From Acetobacterium woodii DSM 1030 (GTDB taxonomy: Bacteria > Bacillota > Clostridia > Eubacteriales > Eubacteriaceae), in contig NC_016894.1 of the NCBI RefSeq assembly GCF_000247605.1, forward strand, positions 2,159,732 to 2,223,731: a DNA stretch of 64,000 nt, written 5' to 3'. The position numbers were made by a program, and so were the translations under genes. This document shows positions 43,258 through 53,155 of this stretch, one piece after another. Under the pieces are notes generated by a model, which saw only the letters and a program-made list of their open reading frames with translations, did no database searches and was not told the DNA's origin. Position 1 is the stretch's first letter. Every line of letters begins with the position of its first letter.

Positions 43258-44022
43258 ATGGGAACCTATCAGATAATTGGCGCCAATGCCAGCAATTCAA
43301 ATTGTATCACCGGGGAGACGGATCATCTTTATTCGCACCTTAAGGAAGCTATCTCCCGGGCCAAACAAATTGATGTCAACGTGTCTTTTTTAATGGTGTC
43401 GGGGATCAAAATGATTCTGGACGATCTCAAAACTGCCGCTGCCAAAGGCGCAACAATCCGGATTCTCTGCGGCAATTATCTCAATATTACCCAGCCGGTC
43501 GCCCTCTATCTGCTTAAAGATGCCCTGGGGGAGCGGCTGGATCTCCGTTTTTACAATGTACCCAACCAATCCTTTCACGCCAAAGCCTATTTTTTCAGCT
43601 ATCCGGATTATCAAGAAGTTTTTGTGGGCTCATCCAACCTATCCAAATCAGCCCTGACGACCGGGATCGAGTGGAATTATCGGATCGATTCCAAAGCCCA
43701 ACAAGCAGATTGCGATTTTTTCCGGCAGACCTTTGAAGATCTACTGGCCAATCACTCTCTGATCATTGATGATGCCGAACTGAAACGATACGCCAAACAA
43801 TGGATTCGCCCCAAAATTATTCAGCAAATCGAAGAAATTGAGGAGGAGTGCCCAGCGATTGCCGATCTTGCCGAAACCCCTGATCGAGTGACCCAGGGTC
43901 AGGCGGTATTTATTGTTGATCCGGTTATCCTGGACCCAGCGGCACTGATTGTACTGCTAGGTGGGGTTGTGTTATGGAGACCTTTATTACCGAGGATGTA
44001 CGAGACAGACAAGATGGGGTGA
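43258..44022 (+). CDS. PLD-like nuclease-fold protein (single HKD site)
   Basis: 254 residues. One phospholipase-D-type domain with HAKAYFF and, about 15 residues on, VGSSNLSKSAL, the arrangement seen in helicase-associated PLD nucleases. Full PLD helicase proteins are ~1000 residues, so this is a stand-alone or C-terminally cut form. The last ~35 residues look unrelated to the family and overlap another short frame (43974-44063). It marks the left edge of the defence island, and codon use is still like the chromosome. Confidence 0.8.
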   Translation: MGTYQIIGANASNSNCITGETDHLYSHLKEAISRAKQIDVNVSFLMVSGIKMILDDLKTAAAKGATIRILCGNYLNITQPVALYLLKDALGERLDLRFYNVPNQSFHAKAYFFSYPDYQEVFVGSSNLSKSALTTGIEWNYRIDSKAQQADCDFFRQTFEDLLANHSLIIDDAELKRYAKQWIRPKIIQQIEEIEEECPAIADLAETPDRVTQGQAVFIVDPVILDPAALIVLLGGVVLWRPLLPRMYETDKMG

Positions 44023-44131: not shown

Positions 44132-45946
44132 ATGAATATTGTAACTGAACTAATTGAGAAAATTGAAGGTACACTTTGTGGTGATTTTAAGCTTTATGAA
44201 CCTTACATAAGATATATAAGATTTCCTCATTACAAATCAATCGTTGATGGCACAAAAATTGAATTTGATTTTCCGTTAACTATTTTTGTTGGTGCAAACG
44301 GTACAAACAAAACTTCGATTTTACAGGCTTTATATGGTTGCCCTAAAGGTAAAAATGTTGGTATTTACTGGTTTTCAACTGATGTTGATAAAGTCGATGA
44401 AAAAGAGAAACATTGCTTAATTTATGGTTATAATCATTTAGGTGCGAATAAAATAGTTGAGGTTTTAAAATCTCGAATCGATAAGGAAGAGAATAAAGAC
44501 TATTGGGAGCCATCCAGACCGATTATTGGTTATGATATGGTAAAATCCAATATAGAAGAATATGAAAAATCAGGTAATAGTAATACAACGAGATGGGATA
44601 CTATAATCAAAAATGTTATATATATGGATTGTAAAGAATATCTACCAGCATTTGATTTAATGTTTTATCATTCATTATTTAATAAAACTGTTAGATTTAA
44701 GACTAAACAAGAATTTATCAGAAGTCGTTCAAAAATGCTCAACACAGTTGTGACAGATAATCTCACTAAATATGATTTTTACAGTATACAGAGAATTAGA
44801 ATAAACCGACTATTAAGTGATGAGACATGTAGAATTGTTTCAGAGATAATGGGTAAAAATTATAAAAAAATCAGAATTATTGATCATTCCCTTTATACTC
44901 AAAATCATGCAAAAACTATTTTAATAAAAGAAGGAGAGTTGGAATATACTGAAGCATTTGCTGGTAGTGGTGAATCACGAATTATTATGCTGGTCGATAG
45001 TATTCTTAACGCCAAAGATAAATCTCTGATACTCATCGATGAACCGGAGATATCCCTGCACCCCGCTGCACAAAAGAGATTCAGAGATTTTGTTTTAGAA
45101 CAGATCGTTAAAAAGAAACATCAGGTTTTTATTACAACACATTCACCAACAATGATAGCGGATCTTCCCAAAACGGCAATCAAATTGTTGCGTGTCAGAA
45201 AAACTGATAAAAAGATCGAGGTTCTATCAGATATTCACTGGAAATCTGCTTTTATTGAAATAGGTCATGAAGAAGGCGAAAGTACTGTAATTTATGTTGA
45301 GGATAAACTTTCGCAGAAAATTATTGAAAAATACATAAAGTGCAAATACAACAACAGTATAGTACCAGTAATATATCTACCAGGTGGTGCTGAGGCAATA
45401 ATAAAACAACATGTGTCAATAGCGGCGGCAGAAAAACGCAATACCTATTTTATACTCGATGGTGATAAAAACTACTATCCTTTCGAGGAACTGAATAGCC
45501 ATTTTGATATAGAAAACATAACAAATTCATGGAAGAAAATTCAGGAAAATCAAATAGCAGTAGGGTATAATAGTAAATTAGAATATATTATTCAAAAAAT
45601 GACTAAGGTCAATAAAATTCAATTTTCTTATGACGGTAATCAGGGAAATCCTGATCAGGAACAAAAGATAAAAGTATTACGTAATTTTATAAAATTCTGG
45701 GAGAAAAATGTCTGGTTTTTACCAGAAAAAACACCTGAAGAGGCTCTTTTGAAGAGTATGGGCGTTAAGCTTGGAAGTGAAACAGATTTTAAAAGATACT
45801 TTGAAGAAAAAGCTTGTGAAGATTTGGGAGAAGAAGTTGATTCAGAAGATATTTATAACTTTCAAAGAAAATGCATTAATAAACTTGGAGATGACTGTGA
45901 ATTATTCAAACAACTGGATGATGTATTTAAAAATATTTTGGGATAG
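44132..45946 (+). CDS. OLD-family ATPase with C-terminal TOPRIM nuclease domain
   Basis: 604 residues. SMC/ABC-type ATPase: Walker A-like GANGTNKTS (residues ~54-62, with Asn-Lys in place of the common Gly-Lys), signature AGSGESR, Walker B LILIDEPEISLHP and H-loop ITTHSPTM. The C-terminal ~200 residues carry a TOPRIM-like pattern: VIYVEDKLSQKII (catalytic Glu) and FILDGDKN (DxD). This architecture is that of OLD/GajA-type DNA nucleases used in phage defence. The C5 methyltransferase starts 11 bases after its stop. AT-rich codon use unlike the genes to the left, a sign of transfer. Confidence 0.87.
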   Translation: MNIVTELIEKIEGTLCGDFKLYEPYIRYIRFPHYKSIVDGTKIEFDFPLTIFVGANGTNKTSILQALYGCPKGKNVGIYWFSTDVDKVDEKEKHCLIYGYNHLGANKIVEVLKSRIDKEENKDYWEPSRPIIGYDMVKSNIEEYEKSGNSNTTRWDTIIKNVIYMDCKEYLPAFDLMFYHSLFNKTVRFKTKQEFIRSRSKMLNTVVTDNLTKYDFYSIQRIRINRLLSDETCRIVSEIMGKNYKKIRIIDHSLYTQNHAKTILIKEGELEYTEAFAGSGESRIIMLVDSILNAKDKSLILIDEPEISLHPAAQKRFRDFVLEQIVKKKHQVFITTHSPTMIADLPKTAIKLLRVRKTDKKIEVLSDIHWKSAFIEIGHEEGESTVIYVEDKLSQKIIEKYIKCKYNNSIVPVIYLPGGAEAIIKQHVSIAAAEKRNTYFILDGDKNYYPFEELNSHFDIENITNSWKKIQENQIAVGYNSKLEYIIQKMTKVNKIQFSYDGNQGNPDQEQKIKVLRNFIKFWEKNVWFLPEKTPEEALLKSMGVKLGSETDFKRYFEEKACEDLGEEVDSEDIYNFQRKCINKLGDDCELFKQLDDVFKNILG

Positions 45947-45957
45947 AGGTGATTTGT

Positions 45958-46992
45958 TTGATAAAAGTGTATGATTTCTTTTCTGGTTGTGGTGGCGCAA
46001 GTTCGGGTTTTCGAAAAGCTGGTTTTGAAATTGCATTAGGTATTGATATTGATAATGATGCATCTGAAACGTTCAGACAGAATTTTCCTGAAGCAGAATT
46101 TATAAATGAAGATATTCGTAACTTAATGCCAGAAGATATCAGCGAATATGTTGATACAGAATCAAAAAAACTATTCTGTGGTTGTGCACCTTGTCAGCCG
46201 TTTTCAAAACAGAATCGAAATAAGACAGGCGAGGATATGAGGATAAATTTACTTGACGAATTTTATCGTTTCATTGACTTTTACTTGCCGGATTACTTAT
46301 TTATTGAAAATGTTCCTGGTATCCAGAATTTTAAAATGGGCGGAAGCCCATTGGAGAGTTTTGTACATAAATTAAAGGAGTGTGGTTATAAAATAAAGAC
46401 CCAAGTGATTGCTGCGTCTGATTTTGGTGTGCCGCAAATCAGAAAAAGGCTTATATTGATTGGTGCTTTGAATAAGGAAGTTGAATTTCCATCACCGACA
46501 CACGGCGAAAACAGGAGTCTACCAGAAACAGTATTCAGCGACTGGGTTTACGATTTACCCTTATTAGAAGCTGGTGAAACTGATCCAGAAGATCCTGATC
46601 ACTGTGCAGCAGCATTGACAGAGAAAAATTTAATGCGAATAAGAGCAACACCTGAAGGTGGTGGCAGGGAAGATTGGATCGACGATTTAAAACTTGACTG
46701 TCATAAAAATCACATCGGTCATACGGATGTTTACGGACGGCTGTCATATGACAAAAAATGCAGTACATTAACAACAAAGTGTATCAGTTATTCAAATGGT
46801 CGATATGGTCATCCAGTGGAGGACAGAGCTTTAAGTGTGAGGGAAGCTGCCTGTCTTCAGACGTTTGATCGTACGTTTGCTTTTGCTGGTAAACTTGGTT
46901 CAAAAGCAAAACAAGTTGGAAATGCAGTTCCCCCACTGCTTGCTTATAATTTTGGCATCGTTTTCAATGAGATGGAAAGGTCCTCAGATTGA
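45958..46992 (+). CDS. C5-cytosine DNA methyltransferase (partner of the OLD-type ATPase)
   Basis: 344 residues with all the standard motifs: I FFSGCGGASSGF, IV CAPCQPFSKQ (catalytic Cys), VI ENVPG, VIII QIRKRLI, and X AKQVGNAVPP. The target-recognition region lies between ~185 and ~290 and resembles no group I can name, so the recognised base string is unknown. TTG start at 45958, chosen from AGAGGTGAT and the conserved N-terminus. It forms an operon with the ATPase. It could mark self DNA for that nuclease, or be an orphan methylase (inference). Confidence 0.9.
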   Translation: MIKVYDFFSGCGGASSGFRKAGFEIALGIDIDNDASETFRQNFPEAEFINEDIRNLMPEDISEYVDTESKKLFCGCAPCQPFSKQNRNKTGEDMRINLLDEFYRFIDFYLPDYLFIENVPGIQNFKMGGSPLESFVHKLKECGYKIKTQVIAASDFGVPQIRKRLILIGALNKEVEFPSPTHGENRSLPETVFSDWVYDLPLLEAGETDPEDPDHCAAALTEKNLMRIRATPEGGGREDWIDDLKLDCHKNHIGHTDVYGRLSYDKKCSTLTTKCISYSNGRYGHPVEDRALSVREAACLQTFDRTFAFAGKLGSKAKQVGNAVPPLLAYNFGIVFNEMERSSD

Positions 46993-47071
46993 GAATCTTT
47001 TTTGAAATTTCGTTTTGCCATGGTAAAAAAGGTGATCACATAAGTGAAGAACAGATCTATAAAGAGGGTGC

Positions 47072-47962
47072 ATGAAAAAAACAATTAATAAGCAAGAGAG
47101 AATAAAAAACGAAATAAAGGCAAATGAGCTTCCAGATTATCTAGCAAAAATTAACTCTAAGAGTTTAAAGGAAGTAATAGAGCTCATCGTCTTAATTACC
47201 GGTATTTTTGGTACAGTTTATTTTATTTACGGCTTCGTTTATGTGGAAAAGTATAAAAATGACTGTGCCAATTTTTATGAAATTCCCCGGGAATATTTTT
47301 CTGCTGATGTGAATTATTATTTTTTATACCTTGTATTAATCATTTTATTTGCTATCACAATTATAACGCCCAAATATATAAAAAATTATCTTAAAAAAAA
47401 AGATACATCTAAAATTACAGACCGTATAATAATGAGCTTTTTTATCGGTTTATTTGGTATTTCTTTAGGTCAGTTAATTATTTTGAATTTTGAAGTAATT
47501 CTCATGCATTACCAGTATCTTTATTTTGTAAATAGGTTCTGTGAAATTATAAATTCGAATATGAATAGTATACTAATAATTATGATTGGTTTTTCAATAG
47601 TATTTCAAATCGGAATTACATATGATGAAGAATTAAACCGTACTTCAAATAAAATAGTAAGATCTATTGTCCTTGGAATGCTCCTGCTTGTTATGATTAT
47701 CATACCAGTTATATATGTATGGGGTACTGCAATCAGAGTTTCAAGCACAATTGAGGACAAGACATTGTATGAAACTACACGTTTGAATGAAAAAAATATG
47801 GCAATCCTTACTACGGTTAGCAATCAGTTTCTGGTTTCAGAATATAATGTGGATGAAAAAGAGAGGGTGATTCATATTTATACTGACCAGTATATGTTTG
47901 TGAATAGAGAAAACCTGGTGATCACTTTAAAAAAATTCAACCTACCTATCAAAATAAATTAA
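47072..47962 (+). CDS. Membrane protein of unknown function
   Basis: 296 residues, not recognised. Five hydrophobic helices (about 38-58, 88-108, 120-140, 165-185 and 208-228), then a soluble C-terminal region of ~65 residues (ISNQFLVSEYN, DEKERVIHIYTDQYMFVNREN). AT-rich like its neighbours. AAAGAGGGTG lies a few bases before the ATG. It follows the methyltransferase by 79 bases and may be the membrane arm of the same system (inference). Confidence 0.75.
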   Translation: MKKTINKQERIKNEIKANELPDYLAKINSKSLKEVIELIVLITGIFGTVYFIYGFVYVEKYKNDCANFYEIPREYFSADVNYYFLYLVLIILFAITIITPKYIKNYLKKKDTSKITDRIIMSFFIGLFGISLGQLIILNFEVILMHYQYLYFVNRFCEIINSNMNSILIIMIGFSIVFQIGITYDEELNRTSNKIVRSIVLGMLLLVMIIIPVIYVWGTAIRVSSTIEDKTLYETTRLNEKNMAILTTVSNQFLVSEYNVDEKERVIHIYTDQYMFVNRENLVITLKKFNLPIKIN

Positions 47963-48079: not shown

Positions 48080-49282
48080 ATGTCTAAACAGGTAAATTTG
48101 CATTTTGAAGAAGAAATATATGGCTTGTTGAAAGAATGCTCAGAAAAATATGATATCAGTGTGCAGGGGGTTGTGCGGGAGGCCGTGCTGCACATGCTCA
48201 GTAACAGAAAAAATGTCACCGGAAACGGGTTTAAATTCATCGATCTCTTTGCTGGTATTGGCGGAATGCGCCTAGCCTTTGAGGCCAATGGTGGTGAATG
48301 TGTTTTTTCAAGCGAATGGGACAAATACTGCCAGAAAACCTACTTCGAAAACTTCGGTGATCTACCAGTGGGGGATATCCGCCAGGTGGATGAAAAAGAA
48401 ATTCCGGATCATGATATTCTGGTAGCTGGTTTTCCATGCCAGCCTTTTTCAATTGCCGGGGTATCCAAGAAAAACAGCATGGGTCGGGATCATGGCTTCA
48501 AAGATAAAACCCAGGGCACCCTGTTTTTTGATGTAGTCCGGATACTGGATGAAAAAAGACCTGGGGCTTTTCTGCTTGAAAACGTGAAGAACCTTAAAAG
48601 CCACGACAAGGGTCGAACCTGGGAAATCATCATGAAAACGCTGGAAGAGCTGGACTATGAGGTTTTTCCCTTCGTGCTGGATGGACAAGGATTTGTTCCC
48701 CAGCACCGTGAACGTGTATACATTGTCGGTTTTGACCGACAGAAGTTTGGGAGTGAAATCGCCTTTGACTGTTTACTGAACAAACCTGAGAAAAAGCCGG
48801 TACTCAATGATATTTTAGAGCGGGAAGTGGAACTCAAGTATACATTGTCTGACAAGTTATGGAATTATCTACAGGAATACTCACGTAAACACAAACAAAA
48901 AGGCAACGGTTTTGGTTTTGGCATGCCGGATCGATATGGTATTACCAGAACACTGAGTGCCCGATATTACAAGGACGGATCGGAAATACTGATTTATCAG
49001 GAAGGAAAAAATCCCCGTCGGCTAACACCGAGGGAATGTGCCAGACTGCAGGGGTATCCGGAAGATTTCAAAATTGTGGTGTCAGATACTCAGGCCTATA
49101 AACAATTCGGTAATTCGATCGTGGTGCCGCTGGTTGCTGAAATTGCCAGTAACATGATCGACTTCATTGAAAACCCTGAAGGCCGAGATGGGAATATCCA
49201 GCTGAAGTTTGACTACTTTGGCGAAAGTCTGAAAAGAAGACAGCCAATACAGACTGGTCAAACGGCTCATACTTCCAGATAA
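48080..49282 (+). CDS. EcoRII/Dcm-like C5-cytosine methyltransferase with N-terminal ribbon-helix-helix
   Basis: 400 residues. The first ~48 residues form a predicted CopG-type ribbon-helix-helix (KQVNLHFEEEIYGLLKECS...VREAVLHML). Then come C5 motifs FIDLFAGIGGMRLAF, FPCQPFSIAG (catalytic Cys), LLENVKNL, QHRERVYIVG and QFGNSIVVP. The target-recognition region GNGFGFGMPDRYGITRTLSARYYKDGSEILI is that of the M.EcoRII/Dcm/SsoII group, which modify CCWGG or CCNGG sites. Vsr and an EcoRII-type endonuclease follow, so it is the protective methylase of a type II system. Confidence 0.92.
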   Translation: MSKQVNLHFEEEIYGLLKECSEKYDISVQGVVREAVLHMLSNRKNVTGNGFKFIDLFAGIGGMRLAFEANGGECVFSSEWDKYCQKTYFENFGDLPVGDIRQVDEKEIPDHDILVAGFPCQPFSIAGVSKKNSMGRDHGFKDKTQGTLFFDVVRILDEKRPGAFLLENVKNLKSHDKGRTWEIIMKTLEELDYEVFPFVLDGQGFVPQHRERVYIVGFDRQKFGSEIAFDCLLNKPEKKPVLNDILEREVELKYTLSDKLWNYLQEYSRKHKQKGNGFGFGMPDRYGITRTLSARYYKDGSEILIYQEGKNPRRLTPRECARLQGYPEDFKIVVSDTQAYKQFGNSIVVPLVAEIASNMIDFIENPEGRDGNIQLKFDYFGESLKRRQPIQTGQTAHTSR

Positions 49283-49719
49283 TCAAAATCACTGCTTTTA
49301 ATAAATTGAATGATGACTTCCAGCATTTCGTCGCAGAAGGGCTGGCTTTTCATCATTTTTTTTATTGTGCATTCCCAGATAATCAGGATGCGGATACCAG
49401 ATGACCTCAGGGTAGCAATAGTTCTGGCATCTCTCTGGGTGTTATCAGAAAACTTCTTCTGCCAGAATTCGGTATTGGTTTTAGGAGTCGTGGCATCGCG
49501 ACAGTTTGGATGACGATGCCAGAAACAGCCGTTTATAAATACTGCGATAGAATACCTAGTAAAGTAGAGATCTGGGGTTCCAATAATTGATTTGTAATTA
49601 ACCCGGTAACGTAGATTACTCTTATACAGGGCTCGGCGGATAAACAACTCCGGGGCGGTTTCTTTTGATCTGATTTTTGACATGTTTGCGCTACGTCGAG
49701 CGGTGGATATTTTATCCAT
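49267..49719 (-). CDS. vsr: Very-short-patch repair endonuclease Vsr
   Basis: 150 residues: MSKIRSKETAPELFIRRALY, GTPDLYFTRYSIAVFINGCFWHRHPNC (active-site Asp and zinc ligands) and IRILIIWEC identify Vsr. It nicks T:G mismatches made when 5-methylcytosine in CCWGG-type sites deaminates, thus serving the overlapping EcoRII-like methyltransferase (16 bp tail-to-tail overlap on the opposite strand). The ATG at 49719 follows GGAGG by 10 bases. Confidence 0.93.
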   Translation of the reverse strand: MDKISTARRSANMSKIRSKETAPELFIRRALYKSNLRYRVNYKSIIGTPDLYFTRYSIAVFINGCFWHRHPNCRDATTPKTNTEFWQKKFSDNTQRDARTIATLRSSGIRILIIWECTIKKMMKSQPFCDEMLEVIIQFIKSSDFDYLEV

Positions 49720-49810
49720 TGATGAAGTCACCTCCAAGTATTATCAAAAAATATTGAATTATTCTAAATGAATTGTCTTTATTGATAATACCATAATAAA
49801 TCTGTTAAAC

Positions 49811-49825
49811 ATCTGAAAATCAGAT
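49811..49825. promoter_or_regulatory. Inverted repeat between vsr and the endonuclease gene
   Basis: ATCTGA-AAA-TCAGAT, a perfect 6-3-6 repeat in the 250-base divergent interval. Another pair, TTATCAA (49741) and TTGATAA (49782), lies near vsr. Possible operators of the restriction set. Confidence 0.35.
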
Positions 49826-49854
49826 AATAATAAACGATTTTTTATGAAATAATG

Positions 49855-49883
49855 TTGCGTACCAGTTATCATGATGCTATTAT
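49855..49883 (+). promoter_or_regulatory. Promoter of the EcoRII-type endonuclease
   Basis: TTGCGT, 17-base spacer, TATTAT; ~85 bases before the start codon. Confidence 0.5.
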
Positions 49884-49967
49884 TAAATCAATATATAATT
49901 ATTTGGTTCACTAATTGACACTATGAATAGATCTGGGTAAGAACAGATTGATGATTGGAGAATATGG

Positions 49968-51170
49968 ATGAAAAAAGGTTATCTATCACAATATTTCGAG
50001 GCAGTGGCTCAAAAAGAATTGAGCTCAGTGGAAGTGGACAAGGCGATCAGTAATCAGCATGAATTCAATGGGGCGATGACTCTGAAAAAAATATTTGGCG
50101 TAACACGAAAGAGTTATTCTGCCCACTTCATCTACTTAAATGATGCCGATGAATGGTCGATTGGGGAGGAAGGAACACTGACCTGGTACGATGCCCGGGA
50201 AAATCATCCGAAACGTTCCGAATACCGGATGTATTATTCATCAACTGTAGCCTTTTCTCGCGCTTCGGTTGGGGATACTCTATTTTTGGCGTTAAGACCG
50301 GATAAACAGATTCTGGCAATTTTCACTGAAAAAGATTCGACTATAGAAAATCAGATCCGTTGGCTGTTTGGGCTGGAAGAAAGAGCAGGTACGGATTATT
50401 CTGTCAGAGCTGATTTTGATACAGAGGATAACCGTCTCGATTTCGCGTCAACCTATATTCTTGAACAGATGGGTATCACCATCGAAGAAGATGGTGAGCA
50501 GTATTTGGATCTGATTATTGAGAAGTTTGATGGTATCTTTCCGAAAACAAAAGAATTTTCAGAATTTGCTAGGTCGACTGTAAAAATGGAACTGGAGGAT
50601 AACCCGGATGAGCTCATATTGAGATGGATGGAGCAGGAGGAATTGTTGTTCCGCACTCTCGAAAAGCATTTAATCAGAGAGCGTCTTAAAACCGGATTTG
50701 AGGATGATGTGGATGCATTTATCAGTTTTTCGCTGTCAGTACAAAATCGGAGAAAGAGCAGGGTAGGTCAGGCTCTGGAAAACCATGTAGAATGTCTTTT
50801 GCAGAACAGAGGGATACAATATGACCGGACAAAAATAACAGAAAATAAATCCAAACCAGATTTTATTTTTCCATCAATCAGTGACTATCATAATCGGGAT
50901 TTTAGTGTAGAACGTCTTACCATGCTTGGGGCAAAAACAACCTGTAAAGACCGATGGCGACAGGTTCTGCCGGAAGCAGAACGGATTAAACATAAACATC
51001 TGCTCACTTTGGAAGCCGCTATCAGTGAAAACCAGACTGAAGAGATGATTGCACACAACCTCCAACTTGTAGTCCCAAAACGGTTGCATCAGACCTACAG
51101 TGCTAAACAACAGGCTTGGCTGATAGATGTCAATGAATTTTTCGAATTGGTGGAAGAACGGCAAAGTTAG
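49968..51170 (+). CDS. EcoRII-type restriction endonuclease
   Basis: 400 residues, close to the EcoRII length (404). The N-terminal part (to ~170) fits the EcoRII effector DNA-binding domain that needs a second site. The C-terminal part has the PD-(D/E)xK-type catalytic region: KSKPDFIFP...KTTCKDRWRQVLPEAERIKHKHLLTLE, highly characteristic of EcoRII. It should cut CCWGG-like sites, with strict target set by this and the methylase. Together with the methyltransferase and Vsr it makes a complete restriction-modification-repair set. Confidence 0.93.
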   Translation: MKKGYLSQYFEAVAQKELSSVEVDKAISNQHEFNGAMTLKKIFGVTRKSYSAHFIYLNDADEWSIGEEGTLTWYDARENHPKRSEYRMYYSSTVAFSRASVGDTLFLALRPDKQILAIFTEKDSTIENQIRWLFGLEERAGTDYSVRADFDTEDNRLDFASTYILEQMGITIEEDGEQYLDLIIEKFDGIFPKTKEFSEFARSTVKMELEDNPDELILRWMEQEELLFRTLEKHLIRERLKTGFEDDVDAFISFSLSVQNRRKSRVGQALENHVECLLQNRGIQYDRTKITENKSKPDFIFPSISDYHNRDFSVERLTMLGAKTTCKDRWRQVLPEAERIKHKHLLTLEAAISENQTEEMIAHNLQLVVPKRLHQTYSAKQQAWLIDVNEFFELVEERQS

Positions 51171-51257: not shown

Positions 51258-51303
51258 CAACAAGTTATCAAAAATTTTCACTTATTAAAGGAGGGCCTTG
51301 CCC

Positions 51304-52389
51304 ATGTCCCTATTCAACACTCAATCCACCCCGATCTTCTTAAAAGAAGAGTCCACCACCGCCGAGCAAATCGCTCGCCTCAAAGAACTCCAGGAAAAAG
51401 CCACCGGCAAAGTCAAAGATGATATCGCCCGGGAGATCAATCTGGCCAGCTACGGCGAAATCGGTGAAAAGAACATTGCCTTTGAGCTAAAAAACGCCGG
51501 CATGCCGATGTATATCATCCATGATCTCCATCTCCAATTTGAAGACCTGACGGCGCAAATTGATTATGTGGTGGTTACTCGGAAGCTGATTTTTTTCATC
51601 GAATGCAAAAACCTCTATGGTAATATCGAGATTGATAATCAGGGTAACTTCGTCCGGAGTTATCCCTGGAACGGCCGCACCATTAAAGAAGGGATTTATT
51701 CGCCAATTACCCAGAACCAACGGCATCTAGAAGTATATAAACAGCTAAACCGTTCAAACAAGAAAAGTTTGGTTATGCGAATTGGTTTTGACAAATGCTT
51801 TGATAAATTTCACAAGTCCATTGTTGTTCTTGCCAATCCTAAAACGATACTGAATGCCAAATATGCCAAAAAAGAAGTCAAAGATCAGGTAATCCGGGCC
51901 GATCAGTTAATTGCCTTCATTAAAAATGCGGAAAAACAAAGCAAAGAATTAGCGAGCAGTGAGAAAGGTATGAAAGAATTAGCTAACGGAATTTTGGGCT
52001 ACCACACGCCTATTCCAACCGACTATACCCAAAAATACGAAGAACGCATCGCCAATCAAGCCGAAACCTCAGTCAAACAAGCGCCAGCAGCACCAATCAT
52101 CGTCGAAAAGCCGCCGGCGCCTGTCCCAGTGCTTGAAACAGCAGTGCCACCATTACCCCAGAACGATGAACTGGTCAGCAAACTCAAAGACTTTCGGCTA
52201 AAACAAAGCCGGGCTGAAAATACCAAAGCTTATTGTGTGTTCACTGACAAACAAATGCAGGATTTACTCAGCAAGATGCCAAAGACTACGGATGAGCTGT
52301 TGGGAGTAACCGGTTTTGGTCCGGTAAAGGTCGAAAAATACGGGGTCGCGATTATTGATTTATTAAACGCGGGGATGCGTTTATCCTAA
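51304..52389 (+). CDS. NERD nuclease-related protein with C-terminal HRDC domain
   Basis: 361 residues. An N-terminal helix, then a NERD domain (~45-180; GEIGEKNIAFEL, AQIDYVVVTRKLIFFIECKNLYGNIEI, the acidic ECK being the PD-(D/E)xK-like site). A proline-rich linker and a C-terminal HRDC domain (~285-361; AYCVFTDKQMQDLLSKMPKTTDELLGVTGFGPVKVEKYG) follow. HRDC normally binds DNA in RecQ-type helicases, so it targets the nuclease fold to DNA. GC-richer codon use than the R-M genes. The ATG at 51304 follows AAGGAGG. Confidence 0.88.
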   Translation: MSLFNTQSTPIFLKEESTTAEQIARLKELQEKATGKVKDDIAREINLASYGEIGEKNIAFELKNAGMPMYIIHDLHLQFEDLTAQIDYVVVTRKLIFFIECKNLYGNIEIDNQGNFVRSYPWNGRTIKEGIYSPITQNQRHLEVYKQLNRSNKKSLVMRIGFDKCFDKFHKSIVVLANPKTILNAKYAKKEVKDQVIRADQLIAFIKNAEKQSKELASSEKGMKELANGILGYHTPIPTDYTQKYEERIANQAETSVKQAPAAPIIVEKPPAPVPVLETAVPPLPQNDELVSKLKDFRLKQSRAENTKAYCVFTDKQMQDLLSKMPKTTDELLGVTGFGPVKVEKYGVAIIDLLNAGMRLS

Positions 52390-52411
52390 ACGGCAACTTT
52401 GGGGAGGGGTT

Positions 52412-53155
52412 ATGTTTTTTATATTACTCGAGCTGTTATTAATCGGCGGCTCAATCGCATTATTAATTCACCAAGTCAAGCTGAAGGGTTATCTGGGGGA
52501 AAAGGCTGTCGAAAAAATCCTGACAACTTTACCAAAAGATCAGTATGTAGTTTACAATAATATTTTGCTTAAAACCGATTATGGGACGACTCAAATTGAT
52601 CATATCATTCTTTCCGTATTTGGGGTATTTGTGATTGAAACCAAAAATTATCAAGGCTGGATTTTCGGAAATGAAAGAGATGACTATTGGACACAGAATA
52701 TCTATGGAAAAAAGGCCCGGTTTAAGAATCCGCTTCTGCAGAATTATGGCCACGTCAAAGCCATCGAGCACGTTTTTACGAATTTTGAGGCATTAAAAAT
52801 CATTCCGATCGTAACTTTTTCAGGAAGAAGTGAGCTGAAGGTGAATGTGAATTCGAAAAACGTGATCAAATTTTCGCAATTAAAAGATCAAATCGGATCA
52901 TATACATTAAAGATGATGAATTTTGAAACAGTGCTGAAGATGGGTGAAATCTTAACTCATAACAATATTGACAGTAAAGAAAACCGGATTGAACACAATA
53001 CAAAAATCAAAAGCAATATAAAAAACAACAATATAAAAATAGCCAATAAGATTTGTCCCCGATGTGGGGGAAACTTAGTCAATCGAAATGGTAAATATGG
53101 TCATTTTATCGGTTGCAGTAATTATCCGAAATGCCGATTTACAAAAAAAATCTAA
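52412..53155 (+). CDS. Membrane-anchored NERD protein with topoisomerase-type zinc finger
   Basis: 247 residues: one N-terminal membrane helix (~3-24), a NERD domain (GYLGEKAVEKIL, TQIDHIILSVFGVFVIETKNYQGWIFG) and a C-terminal C4 zinc finger like that at the end of bacterial topoisomerase I (CPRCGGNLV...GCSNYPKCRFTKKI). It follows the NERD-HRDC gene by 22 bases and is probably co-transcribed. Together they suggest a membrane-linked DNA-processing function. Confidence 0.88.
   Translation: MFFILLELLLIGGSIALLIHQVKLKGYLGEKAVEKILTTLPKDQYVVYNNILLKTDYGTTQIDHIILSVFGVFVIETKNYQGWIFGNERDDYWTQNIYGKKARFKNPLLQNYGHVKAIEHVFTNFEALKIIPIVTFSGRSELKVNVNSKNVIKFSQLKDQIGSYTLKMMNFETVLKMGEILTHNNIDSKENRIEHNTKIKSNIKNNNIKIANKICPRCGGNLVNRNGKYGHFIGCSNYPKCRFTKKI

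What the first reader, a model, noticed from the sequence alone, without database searches (positions are those of the whole stretch)
44132..47962. OLD-type ATPase/TOPRIM protein coupled to a C5 methyltransferase and a membrane protein
The ATPase-TOPRIM gene, a C5-cytosine methyltransferase (11 bases later) and a five-helix membrane protein share AT-rich codon use and one direction. The sequence shows intact nuclease-type and methylase motifs. OLD/GajA proteins are known phage-defence nucleases, but pairing with a self-marking C5 methylase plus a membrane arm is not an arrangement I know. It could be a modification-guided defence system: the methylase protects host sites and the nuclease acts on unmodified DNA.
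Basis: partly seen in the sequence, partly recalled or inferred. Interest (0 to 1): 0.7.

Follow-up and report, generated by a model that had tools for sequence, protein, structure and literature searches.

The report
Methylase paired with OLD-family nuclease
A DNA-methylating enzyme and an ATP-driven nuclease of the OLD family are neighbours here and across many bacterial phyla, so they are probably a restriction-modification-like phage-defence pair built on an unusual nuclease; the membrane protein beside them is not a general part of it.

Summary
The first two form a real, widespread pair; the third does not belong to its conserved core. Of 93 non-redundant relatives of the ATPase/TOPRIM protein, 91 have a C5-cytosine methylase in the fetched neighbourhood (15 named phyla); the other two are cut at contig ends. 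In 61 the methylase is same-strand within 200 bp, in either order (13 named phyla). The two genes diverge together (Mantel r 0.70, 80 pairs). The pair also rides in prophages, including 18 of 5426 E. coli genomes. ATPase residues (K60, D303, E304) and TOPRIM residues (E390, D443, D445) are invariant in 85 aligned sequences. AlphaFold models resemble OLD, PtuA and GajA proteins, and the C-terminal domain AriB and OLD nuclease domains. The five-helix membrane protein was found only in two Acetobacterium genomes. Best reading: a restriction-modification-like module with an OLD ATPase-nuclease as effector and the methylase as self-mark. Main rival: a PARIS-like guard or abortive effector tied to cytosine methylation. 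DNA target, methylation sensing and defence are all unshown. The OLD classes in a 2023 review (passages read) include no methylase-linked class; one likely prior source could not be read. New variant of a known kind.

The parts
44132..45946 (+). OLD-family ABC ATPase + C-terminal TOPRIM nuclease, 604 aa: Walker A GANGTNKT (K60), signature GSGE (278-281), Walker B D303/E304, H337; TOPRIM E390 D391, D443-G-D445, E536, K554
45949..46992 (+). C5-cytosine DNA methylase, 347 aa (likely start TTG at 45958); PCQ, ENV, QIRKR and GNAVPP motifs present (motif meanings recalled)
47072..47962 (+). five-helix membrane protein, 296 aa; found full-length only in two Acetobacterium genomes, both with the pair; not a conserved part elsewhere
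43258..44022 (+). N-terminal remnant (254 aa) of a PLD-domain/ResIII-helicase gene; a same-genus relative has an 887-aa version, 81% identical over 233 residues; the AT-rich segment begins about where the similarity ends
48080..49282 (+). second, Dcm-like C5 methylase of the neighbouring EcoRII-like system; follows the pair in A. wieringae too
49267..49737 (-). Vsr mismatch endonuclease of the neighbouring system
49968..51170 (+). EcoRII-C restriction endonuclease of the neighbouring system
   Evidence: 2.8e-71

Best explanation
A two-gene, mobile, restriction-modification-like defence module. The C5 methylase marks a cytosine-containing site in host DNA. The OLD-family protein is the effector: its SMC/Rad50-like ABC head dimerises with ATP, engages DNA and gates the TOPRIM two-metal nuclease, which acts when incoming DNA lacks the mark. 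Shown here: linkage across phyla, joint divergence of the two genes, repeated change of gene order, invariant ATPase and nuclease residues, an OLD-type predicted fold, carriage in prophages and islands. Inferred: dimerisation, substrate (DNA), methylation sensing, defence.
For: 91 of 93 non-redundant OLD relatives have a C5 methylase in the fetched stretch; the other two are truncated at contig ends. 15 named phyla, 13 for directly adjacent pairs. OLD and methylase distances correlate: Mantel r 0.70 over the 80 loci with a full-length OLD and a same-family methylase, 0 of 2000 permutations as high. Seven arrangement classes need 23 changes on the OLD tree (least possible 6; shuffled mean 46.8), both gene orders recurring, so linkage outlives gene order. 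In a methylase-first scan of viral contigs (best 80 of 521 kept), 11 of the 13 best-scoring methylases have OLD adjacent, 0 of the other 67; 9 of the 11 are contigs already seen. Where the usual methylase is absent, a distant C5 methylase is there instead (L051, L065, L066, L074, L079), pointing to the cytosine mark rather than one protein contact. In 32 of 68 tested loci the pair has no co-directional third ORF within 150 bp. Catalytic residues are invariant in 85 sequences and in the three left out of that alignment, matching the metal-A residues of characterised OLD nucleases. Broken OLD with intact methylase in 5 of 99 judged loci, the reverse in none, the asymmetry expected of restriction-modification.
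Against: No methylation motif, cleavage or phage assay. Some members sit with another nuclease (HpaII family, BsaWI-like, Mrr, EcoRII type), and 13 of 109 loci, the window included, hold a second C5 methylase, so the OLD protein need not be the restriction enzyme. The pseudogene asymmetry is weak once gene length is allowed for (my estimate 0.63^5, about 0.10) and may include assembly errors. The TOPRIM domain matches the tRNA-cutting AriB as well as DNA-cutting OLD proteins, at modest scores. Many loci place the nuclease first, awkward for a classical system without a control gene. The window's own pair has neighbours on both sides within 150 bp.
Confidence: 0.5

Rival explanations
1. Guard or abortive effector. 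The OLD protein is a PARIS-like backup: its ABC head senses anti-restriction proteins, DNA ends or loss of methylation, and the TOPRIM domain cuts tRNA or DNA indiscriminately to stop the infected cell. The methylase belongs to the process being guarded.
For: Highest VIA row for the C-terminal domain is a PARIS chain taken to be AriB (8ux9_A, Z 9.5, 3.4 A, 139 residues), tied with Bp OLD (Z 8.9). Best PADLOC model is HEC-04 in all 11 proteins scanned (E 7.6e-30 to 3.5e-38), to which IbfA, an ATPase-TOPRIM protein acting by abortive infection, is said to be homologous (PMC12111858, passages). Five of 93 loci combine OLD with HpaII- or BsaWI-like endonucleases; EcoRII-type genes lie near the pair in the window, L028 and L120; one locus has DrmA-DrmB.
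Against: 1 of 8 more distant OLD-like plasmid genes opened has a C5 methylase in the stretch, so the coupling is not general to such ATPases. In 32 of 68 loci there is no adjacent co-directional third ORF to guard.
Confidence: 0.3
2. Part of a larger modular system with GHKL/MORC ATPases, response-regulator-like proteins and Vsr, in which OLD is one optional effector and the two-gene form is a reduced version.
For: 12 of 93 loci have methylase-HEF_HK-Response_reg_2-OLD and 8 a GHKL ATPase within 3 kb. Methylases of this kind are followed by HEF_HK instead of OLD in L139 and in the same-genus locus L229. 20 of 93 loci have a Vsr gene in the stretch. The HEF_HK/RR/C5-methylase/Vsr cluster is in print (PMC8011034, passages).
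Against: 61 of 93 loci fall in the two classes without HEF_HK, response regulator, GHKL, HpaII or BsaWI clusters within 3 kb, though some end at contig edges and divergent homologues could be missed.
Confidence: 0.15
3. Coincidental neighbours in a defence island; the methylase is an orphan or part of the EcoRII-like system next door.
For: An EcoRII-like system with its own methylase and Vsr lies directly downstream; its methylase and Vsr also follow the pair in A. wieringae.
Against: 91 of 93 linkage, correlated divergence; the EcoRII-type gene cluster is in only 3 of 111 mapped loci.
Confidence: 0.05

Closest known systems
OLD-family nucleases (class 1 P2 Old/TsOLD; class 2 GajA; class 3 retron; class 4 PARIS proposed)
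   Same: ABC ATPase plus C-terminal TOPRIM with E, DxD, distal E and K; Foldseek first hit TsOLD 6p74 (E 9.5e-15)
   Different: Near-constant C5-methylase partner; no GajB, AriB or reverse transcriptase among the nine window genes first scanned. Review PMC10568477 names no methylase class in the passages read
Type II restriction-modification
   Same: C5 methylase beside a nuclease gene, mobile, both orders
   Different: Nuclease is an ABC ATPase-TOPRIM protein rather than a PD-(D/E)XK, HNH or PLD enzyme (usual folds recalled); target site untested
HEC-04 / IbfA
   Same: Single ATPase-TOPRIM protein, best PADLOC model in 11 of 11 scanned
   Different: Best stretch covers only the middle of the protein (roughly residues 210-470); HEC-04 is described as one protein among Hma genes (PMC12111858, passages)
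PARIS (AriA-AriB)
   Same: OLD-type ATPase and a TOPRIM nuclease; C-terminal fold resembles the AriB chain
   Different: One polypeptide, no DUF4435 hit, C5 methylase attached
HEF_HK/Response_reg_2/C5-methylase/Vsr clusters (Bellieny-Rabelo 2021) and MORC R-M operons (Iyer 2008)
   Same: C5 methylases and Vsr; in many Bacteroidota loci the OLD gene lies in the same row
   Different: AAA and TOPRIM do not occur in the main text of PMC8011034; in PMC2292703 TOPRIM occurs only for topoisomerases and in a reference

Membership tests
OLD-family nuclease | ABC ATPase head with Walker A/B, signature, H-loop | tested here: met
   K60, G278/G280/E281, D303/E304, H337 in 85 of 85; head aligns to SMC/Rad50/PtuA chains, Z 15.7-19.1 in the 50 rows shown
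OLD-family nuclease | C-terminal TOPRIM with E and DxD plus metal-B acid and K | tested here: met
   E390, D443, D445 85 of 85; E536 84 of 85 (one D); K554 84 of 85 (one gap). Bp OLD E400, D455, D457, E508, K562; pairing of E536 and K554 with E508 and K562 is by order, no geometry measured. Fold:
Gabija | GajB UvrD-like helicase beside GajA | tested here: not met
   No UvrD hit among the nine genes at 42.5-52.4 kb; a UvrD-PDDEXK gene does adjoin in L053 and L081
PARIS | AriB/DUF4435 TOPRIM effector (the detection rule of PMC9122126) | tested here: not met
   No DUF4435 hit at E 0.1; fold similarity only
Retron effector | reverse transcriptase and ncRNA beside it | tested here: inconclusive
   No reverse transcriptase among the nine genes scanned; ncRNA not searched
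Type II restriction-modification | methylase adjacent to a nuclease gene | tested here: met
Type II restriction-modification | nuclease cuts the methylase's own site when unmethylated | not testable with these tools
   needs enzyme assay and methylome
DISARM | DrmA and DrmB | tested here: not met
   No DrmA or DrmB hit shown for the nine window genes (PADLOC tables of three of them are cut at 25 rows); both present upstream in L042
HEC-04/IbfA | full-length match to the HEC-04 model | tested here: not met
   E 3.1e-33, best stretch only profile positions 161-382 of 494

The most novel reading that the evidence does not exclude
A methylation-licensed restriction or suicide system: an SMC-like ABC clamp reads the absence of 5-methylcytosine at a site and switches on a TOPRIM nuclease that cuts DNA or tRNA, a restriction chemistry outside the usual restriction-enzyme folds and a methylase-linked class of OLD proteins spread over 15 named phyla.
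Probability: 0.3. Interest if true: 0.8.

Novelty: new variant of a known kind. Interest (0 to 1): 0.6.

Why it matters
If the OLD protein is licensed by cytosine methylation, the OLD family, whose triggers are largely unclear, gains a defined self/non-self signal that can be tested with two genes and one methylation site. It would also add an ATPase-gated TOPRIM enzyme to the nuclease types used in restriction-modification. PADLOC scores the two genes under separate models, and E. coli annotation calls them 'ATP-dependent nuclease' and 'DNA cytosine methyltransferase', so the pair is easily overlooked.

Tried and rejected
Membrane protein as a general third arm: rejected; in the genus it does go with the pair, 2 of 2, so a local accessory role is open. 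Apparent OLD-methylase fusion in L099 (1879 aa): an artefact of a run of N read through by my ORF script; the locus fell out at dereplication. First E. coli count: one search gives 85 of 5426 genomes with any match, but only 18 hold the pair (8 of one subtype, 10 of another); the other 67 were not examined. Degenerate Walker A: the window has N59 where G is usual; N in 26 of 85, S in 2, so a family variant. Single-sequence viral scan found no relative; the profile scan did. Phage records: none for the window protein, three partial weak matches for the E. coli prophage protein. Plasmids: no place covering 80%.

Rows dropped: L018-L020 (copies of L092, L094, L101), L021 and L128 (distant, no methylase found) were left out of the 109; counting those two would give 91 of 95. 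Dereplication was at 85% identity. L061, L112 and L125 were left out of alignment A5 and checked later. The Mantel test uses 80 of 93. judges 99 of 109; ten lacked a same-family methylase call. Linked methylases in the genome set often score as low as unlinked viral ones, so the score boundary holds only in the viral set; the tree separates them with 3 changes. Trees are quick searches without mixture model, with long-branch warnings. Cut-offs (methylase E 1e-8; over 200 bits for same family) are mine. The 86-residue match in G086 was not examined.

Literature: full-text searches, several lists capped; no listed title or abstract beginning names the pair. Only passages and one abstract were read. 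Not held: 10.1093/nar/gkaa726 (Krishnan 2020, title recalled) and 10.1111/mmi.15074 (Dot 2023). PMC12839542 (passages) says TOPRIM-linked OLD neighbourhoods were described earlier by Aravind and colleagues (its reference 52; that this is Krishnan 2020 is recalled), so part of this may be in print.
Full report
OBSERVATION. The three ORFs are present as described. The window is 2159732-2223731 of a single 4,044,777-base contig; that size, and a 75%-identical relative in Acetobacterium wieringae, suggest Acetobacterium woodii, a name recalled from genome size and given by no call. The ATPase matches AAA_15/AAA_21, the second gene DNA_methylase, the third no Pfam or PADLOC family (NCBIfam 0.05 only). 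The methylase start is probably the TTG at 45958, eleven bases after the ATPase stop.

SURROUNDINGS. Upstream are radC and a 254-aa PLD-domain gene; downstream a Dcm-like methylase, Vsr, an EcoRII-type endonuclease and two NERD-domain genes. In a same-genus genome (G682) the PLD gene is an 887-aa PLD-ResIII helicase, 81% identical over 233 residues, so the window copy is a remnant, cut about where the AT-rich segment begins. In that relative a nearby methylase, 40% identical to the window's, is followed by a HEF_HK GHKL gene and preceded by Vsr, with no OLD gene seen in the ORFs listed. In A. wieringae the block OLD-methylase-membrane protein-second methylase-Vsr is kept at 75, 89, 71, 90 and 83% identity, without matches to the window's upstream genes tested; the contig ends there. 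3 of 19 genus genomes, the window's included, have a methylase of this kind at E 1e-60; the third is the HEF_HK-associated one. The membrane protein is in 2 of 19, the two with the pair.

SURVEY. A class sample gave two hits besides the window's genome among 291 genomes and a phylum sample five among 398. The four with a long OLD match all have the methylase next downstream. Of the others, one OLD gene is cut near a contig end by a group II intron-type reverse transcriptase, one is distant (25%), one was not examined. A five-row alignment was used to scan contigs of 84,980 species (88 relatives, best 80 kept) and viral contigs (27). Across 109 loci, dereplicated to 93 at 85% identity, 91 have a C5 methylase in the fetched stretch: 61 on the same strand within 200 bp; 2 on the opposite strand within 200 bp; 28 farther, of which 22 have HEF_HK/response-regulator, GHKL or restriction-enzyme genes in the row, 3 have a split OLD ORF and 3 are other; 2 have none, both cut at contig ends. 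Arrangement classes: OLD>MT 40, MT>OLD 21, HEF-RR 12, GHKL 8, REase+mt 5, other 5, none 2. Named phyla: 15 with any methylase, 13 for adjacent pairs; 19 of the loci have no named phylum. The weakest case is L062 (Actinomycetota), with only distant methylases, the nearer one 1.9 kb away. The scan was seeded with five OLD proteins that all had a methylase, but it selected on the OLD protein alone.

CONTROLS. Eight more distant OLD-like ATPases on plasmids were opened (8 of the hits): 1 of 8 has a C5 methylase in the stretch (L237, with Vsr and Z1); others have a Type I system, BREX genes or nothing of the kind. Plasmid gene tables are incomplete and some stretches are short. Methylase-first scan of viral contigs (best 80 of 521): 11 of the 13 best have OLD adjacent, 0 of 67 below; L139 has HEF_HK instead and L140 runs off its contig. 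Nine of the 11 are contigs already seen, so this is mainly a check of exclusiveness.

EVOLUTION. Distances of OLD and methylase correlate (Mantel r 0.70, Spearman 0.41, 80 pairs, 0 of 2000 permutations); shared descent of hosts is not separated out. On the methylase tree linked and unlinked rows need 3 changes against 36.5 in shuffles. Incongruences such as L022/L023/L068, whose OLD is nearest the window's among non-Acetobacterium rows while their methylases group elsewhere, suggest partner exchange. Distant C5 methylases stand in at L051, L065, L066, L074, L079.

MOBILITY. In the two E. coli genomes opened the pair is prophage cargo on the strand opposite its neighbours, next to an antiterminator Q gene, with lysis genes within about 2 kb on the other side. 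The pair is in 18 of 5426 E. coli genomes. In L029, L115 and L126 an S24-peptidase repressor-type gene lies directly upstream.

STRUCTURE. AlphaFold on 85 sequences: mean pLDDT 92.1, pTM 0.74. Foldseek: TsOLD 6p74 first (E 9.5e-15), then PtuA-type and GajA chains, with TM-scores only 0.2-0.5, perhaps because domain placement differs. VIA: residues 18-382 match SMC, Rad50 and PtuA heads, Z up to 19.1. C-terminal domain alone (residues 378-604, 62 sequences, pLDDT 91.8): Foldseek best E 4.4e-3, XccOLD; VIA Z 9.5 for PARIS chain 8ux9_A (taken as AriB, since names chain B AriA), 8.9 BpOLD, 8.3 XccOLD and GajA, 7.8 TsOLD; one unrelated row scores 8.1 (2p62), the other unrelated rows under 6. The tool warns that Z near 8 is common, so the weight lies on 17 of the 18 best rows being OLD, GajA or PARIS chains and on the residues. 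The acids match the metal-A residues described for Bp and Ts OLD (passages of PMC6755086 and PMC7049728).

MECHANISM. The steady partner is a C5 methylase, not a helicase, reverse transcriptase or membrane protein. With catalytic residues kept, the simplest account is mark-and-attack with the ABC head as ATP-dependent gate. That is inference: an AriB-like tRNase or guard would leave the same footprint. Members beside HpaII-type, BsaWI-like (below Pfam's cut-off), Mrr, EcoRII-type, DrmA-DrmB or UvrD-PDDEXK genes, and a second C5 methylase in 13 of 109 loci, show that the OLD protein can sit with systems that have another nuclease.

KNOWN OR NEW. The review of OLD classes names stand-alone, Gabija, retron and PARIS contexts and no methylase class in the passages seen (PMC10568477). 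GHKL/RR/C5-methylase/Vsr clusters are in print (PMC8011034, PMC2292703). A 2026 paper credits earlier work with TOPRIM-linked OLD neighbourhoods (PMC12839542), which I could not read. I therefore claim a new variant, not a new kind.

Noticed in passing
window 48080-51170: A second, separate system next door: Dcm-like C5 methylase, Vsr on the opposite strand and an EcoRII-C endonuclease. EcoRII-type genes also lie near the pair in L028 and L120.
   Followed up: partly
window 43258-44022; L229 10686-13349: PLD-helicase gene cut to a 254-aa remnant in the window, 887 aa in a same-genus relative that carries a methylase-HEF_HK system nearby: a possible exchange spot for defence cassettes.
   Followed up: partly
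L042 451-8791: DrmA-DrmB followed by C5 methylase and OLD, with Vsr on the opposite strand: a DISARM-like set with OLD in the row.
   Followed up: partly
L066, L079, L051: Vsr, two C5 methylases, a BsaWI-like protein, an HpaII-family endonuclease and OLD in one row; Pfam was run on L066 only, the others by clustering.
   Followed up: partly
L049 2182-5907: A 1241-aa kinase/ORC-CDC6-like AAA protein (PADLOC CARF_STK_AAA) directly upstream of the pair.
   Followed up: no
L101 (same place as L020): OLD gene broken off after about 219 matched residues, followed on the other strand by a group II intron reverse transcriptase near a contig end.
   Followed up: partly
window 51298-53155: Two NERD-domain genes in a row, the first with a C-terminal HRDC domain, the second with a topoisomerase-type zinc ribbon.
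   Followed up: no
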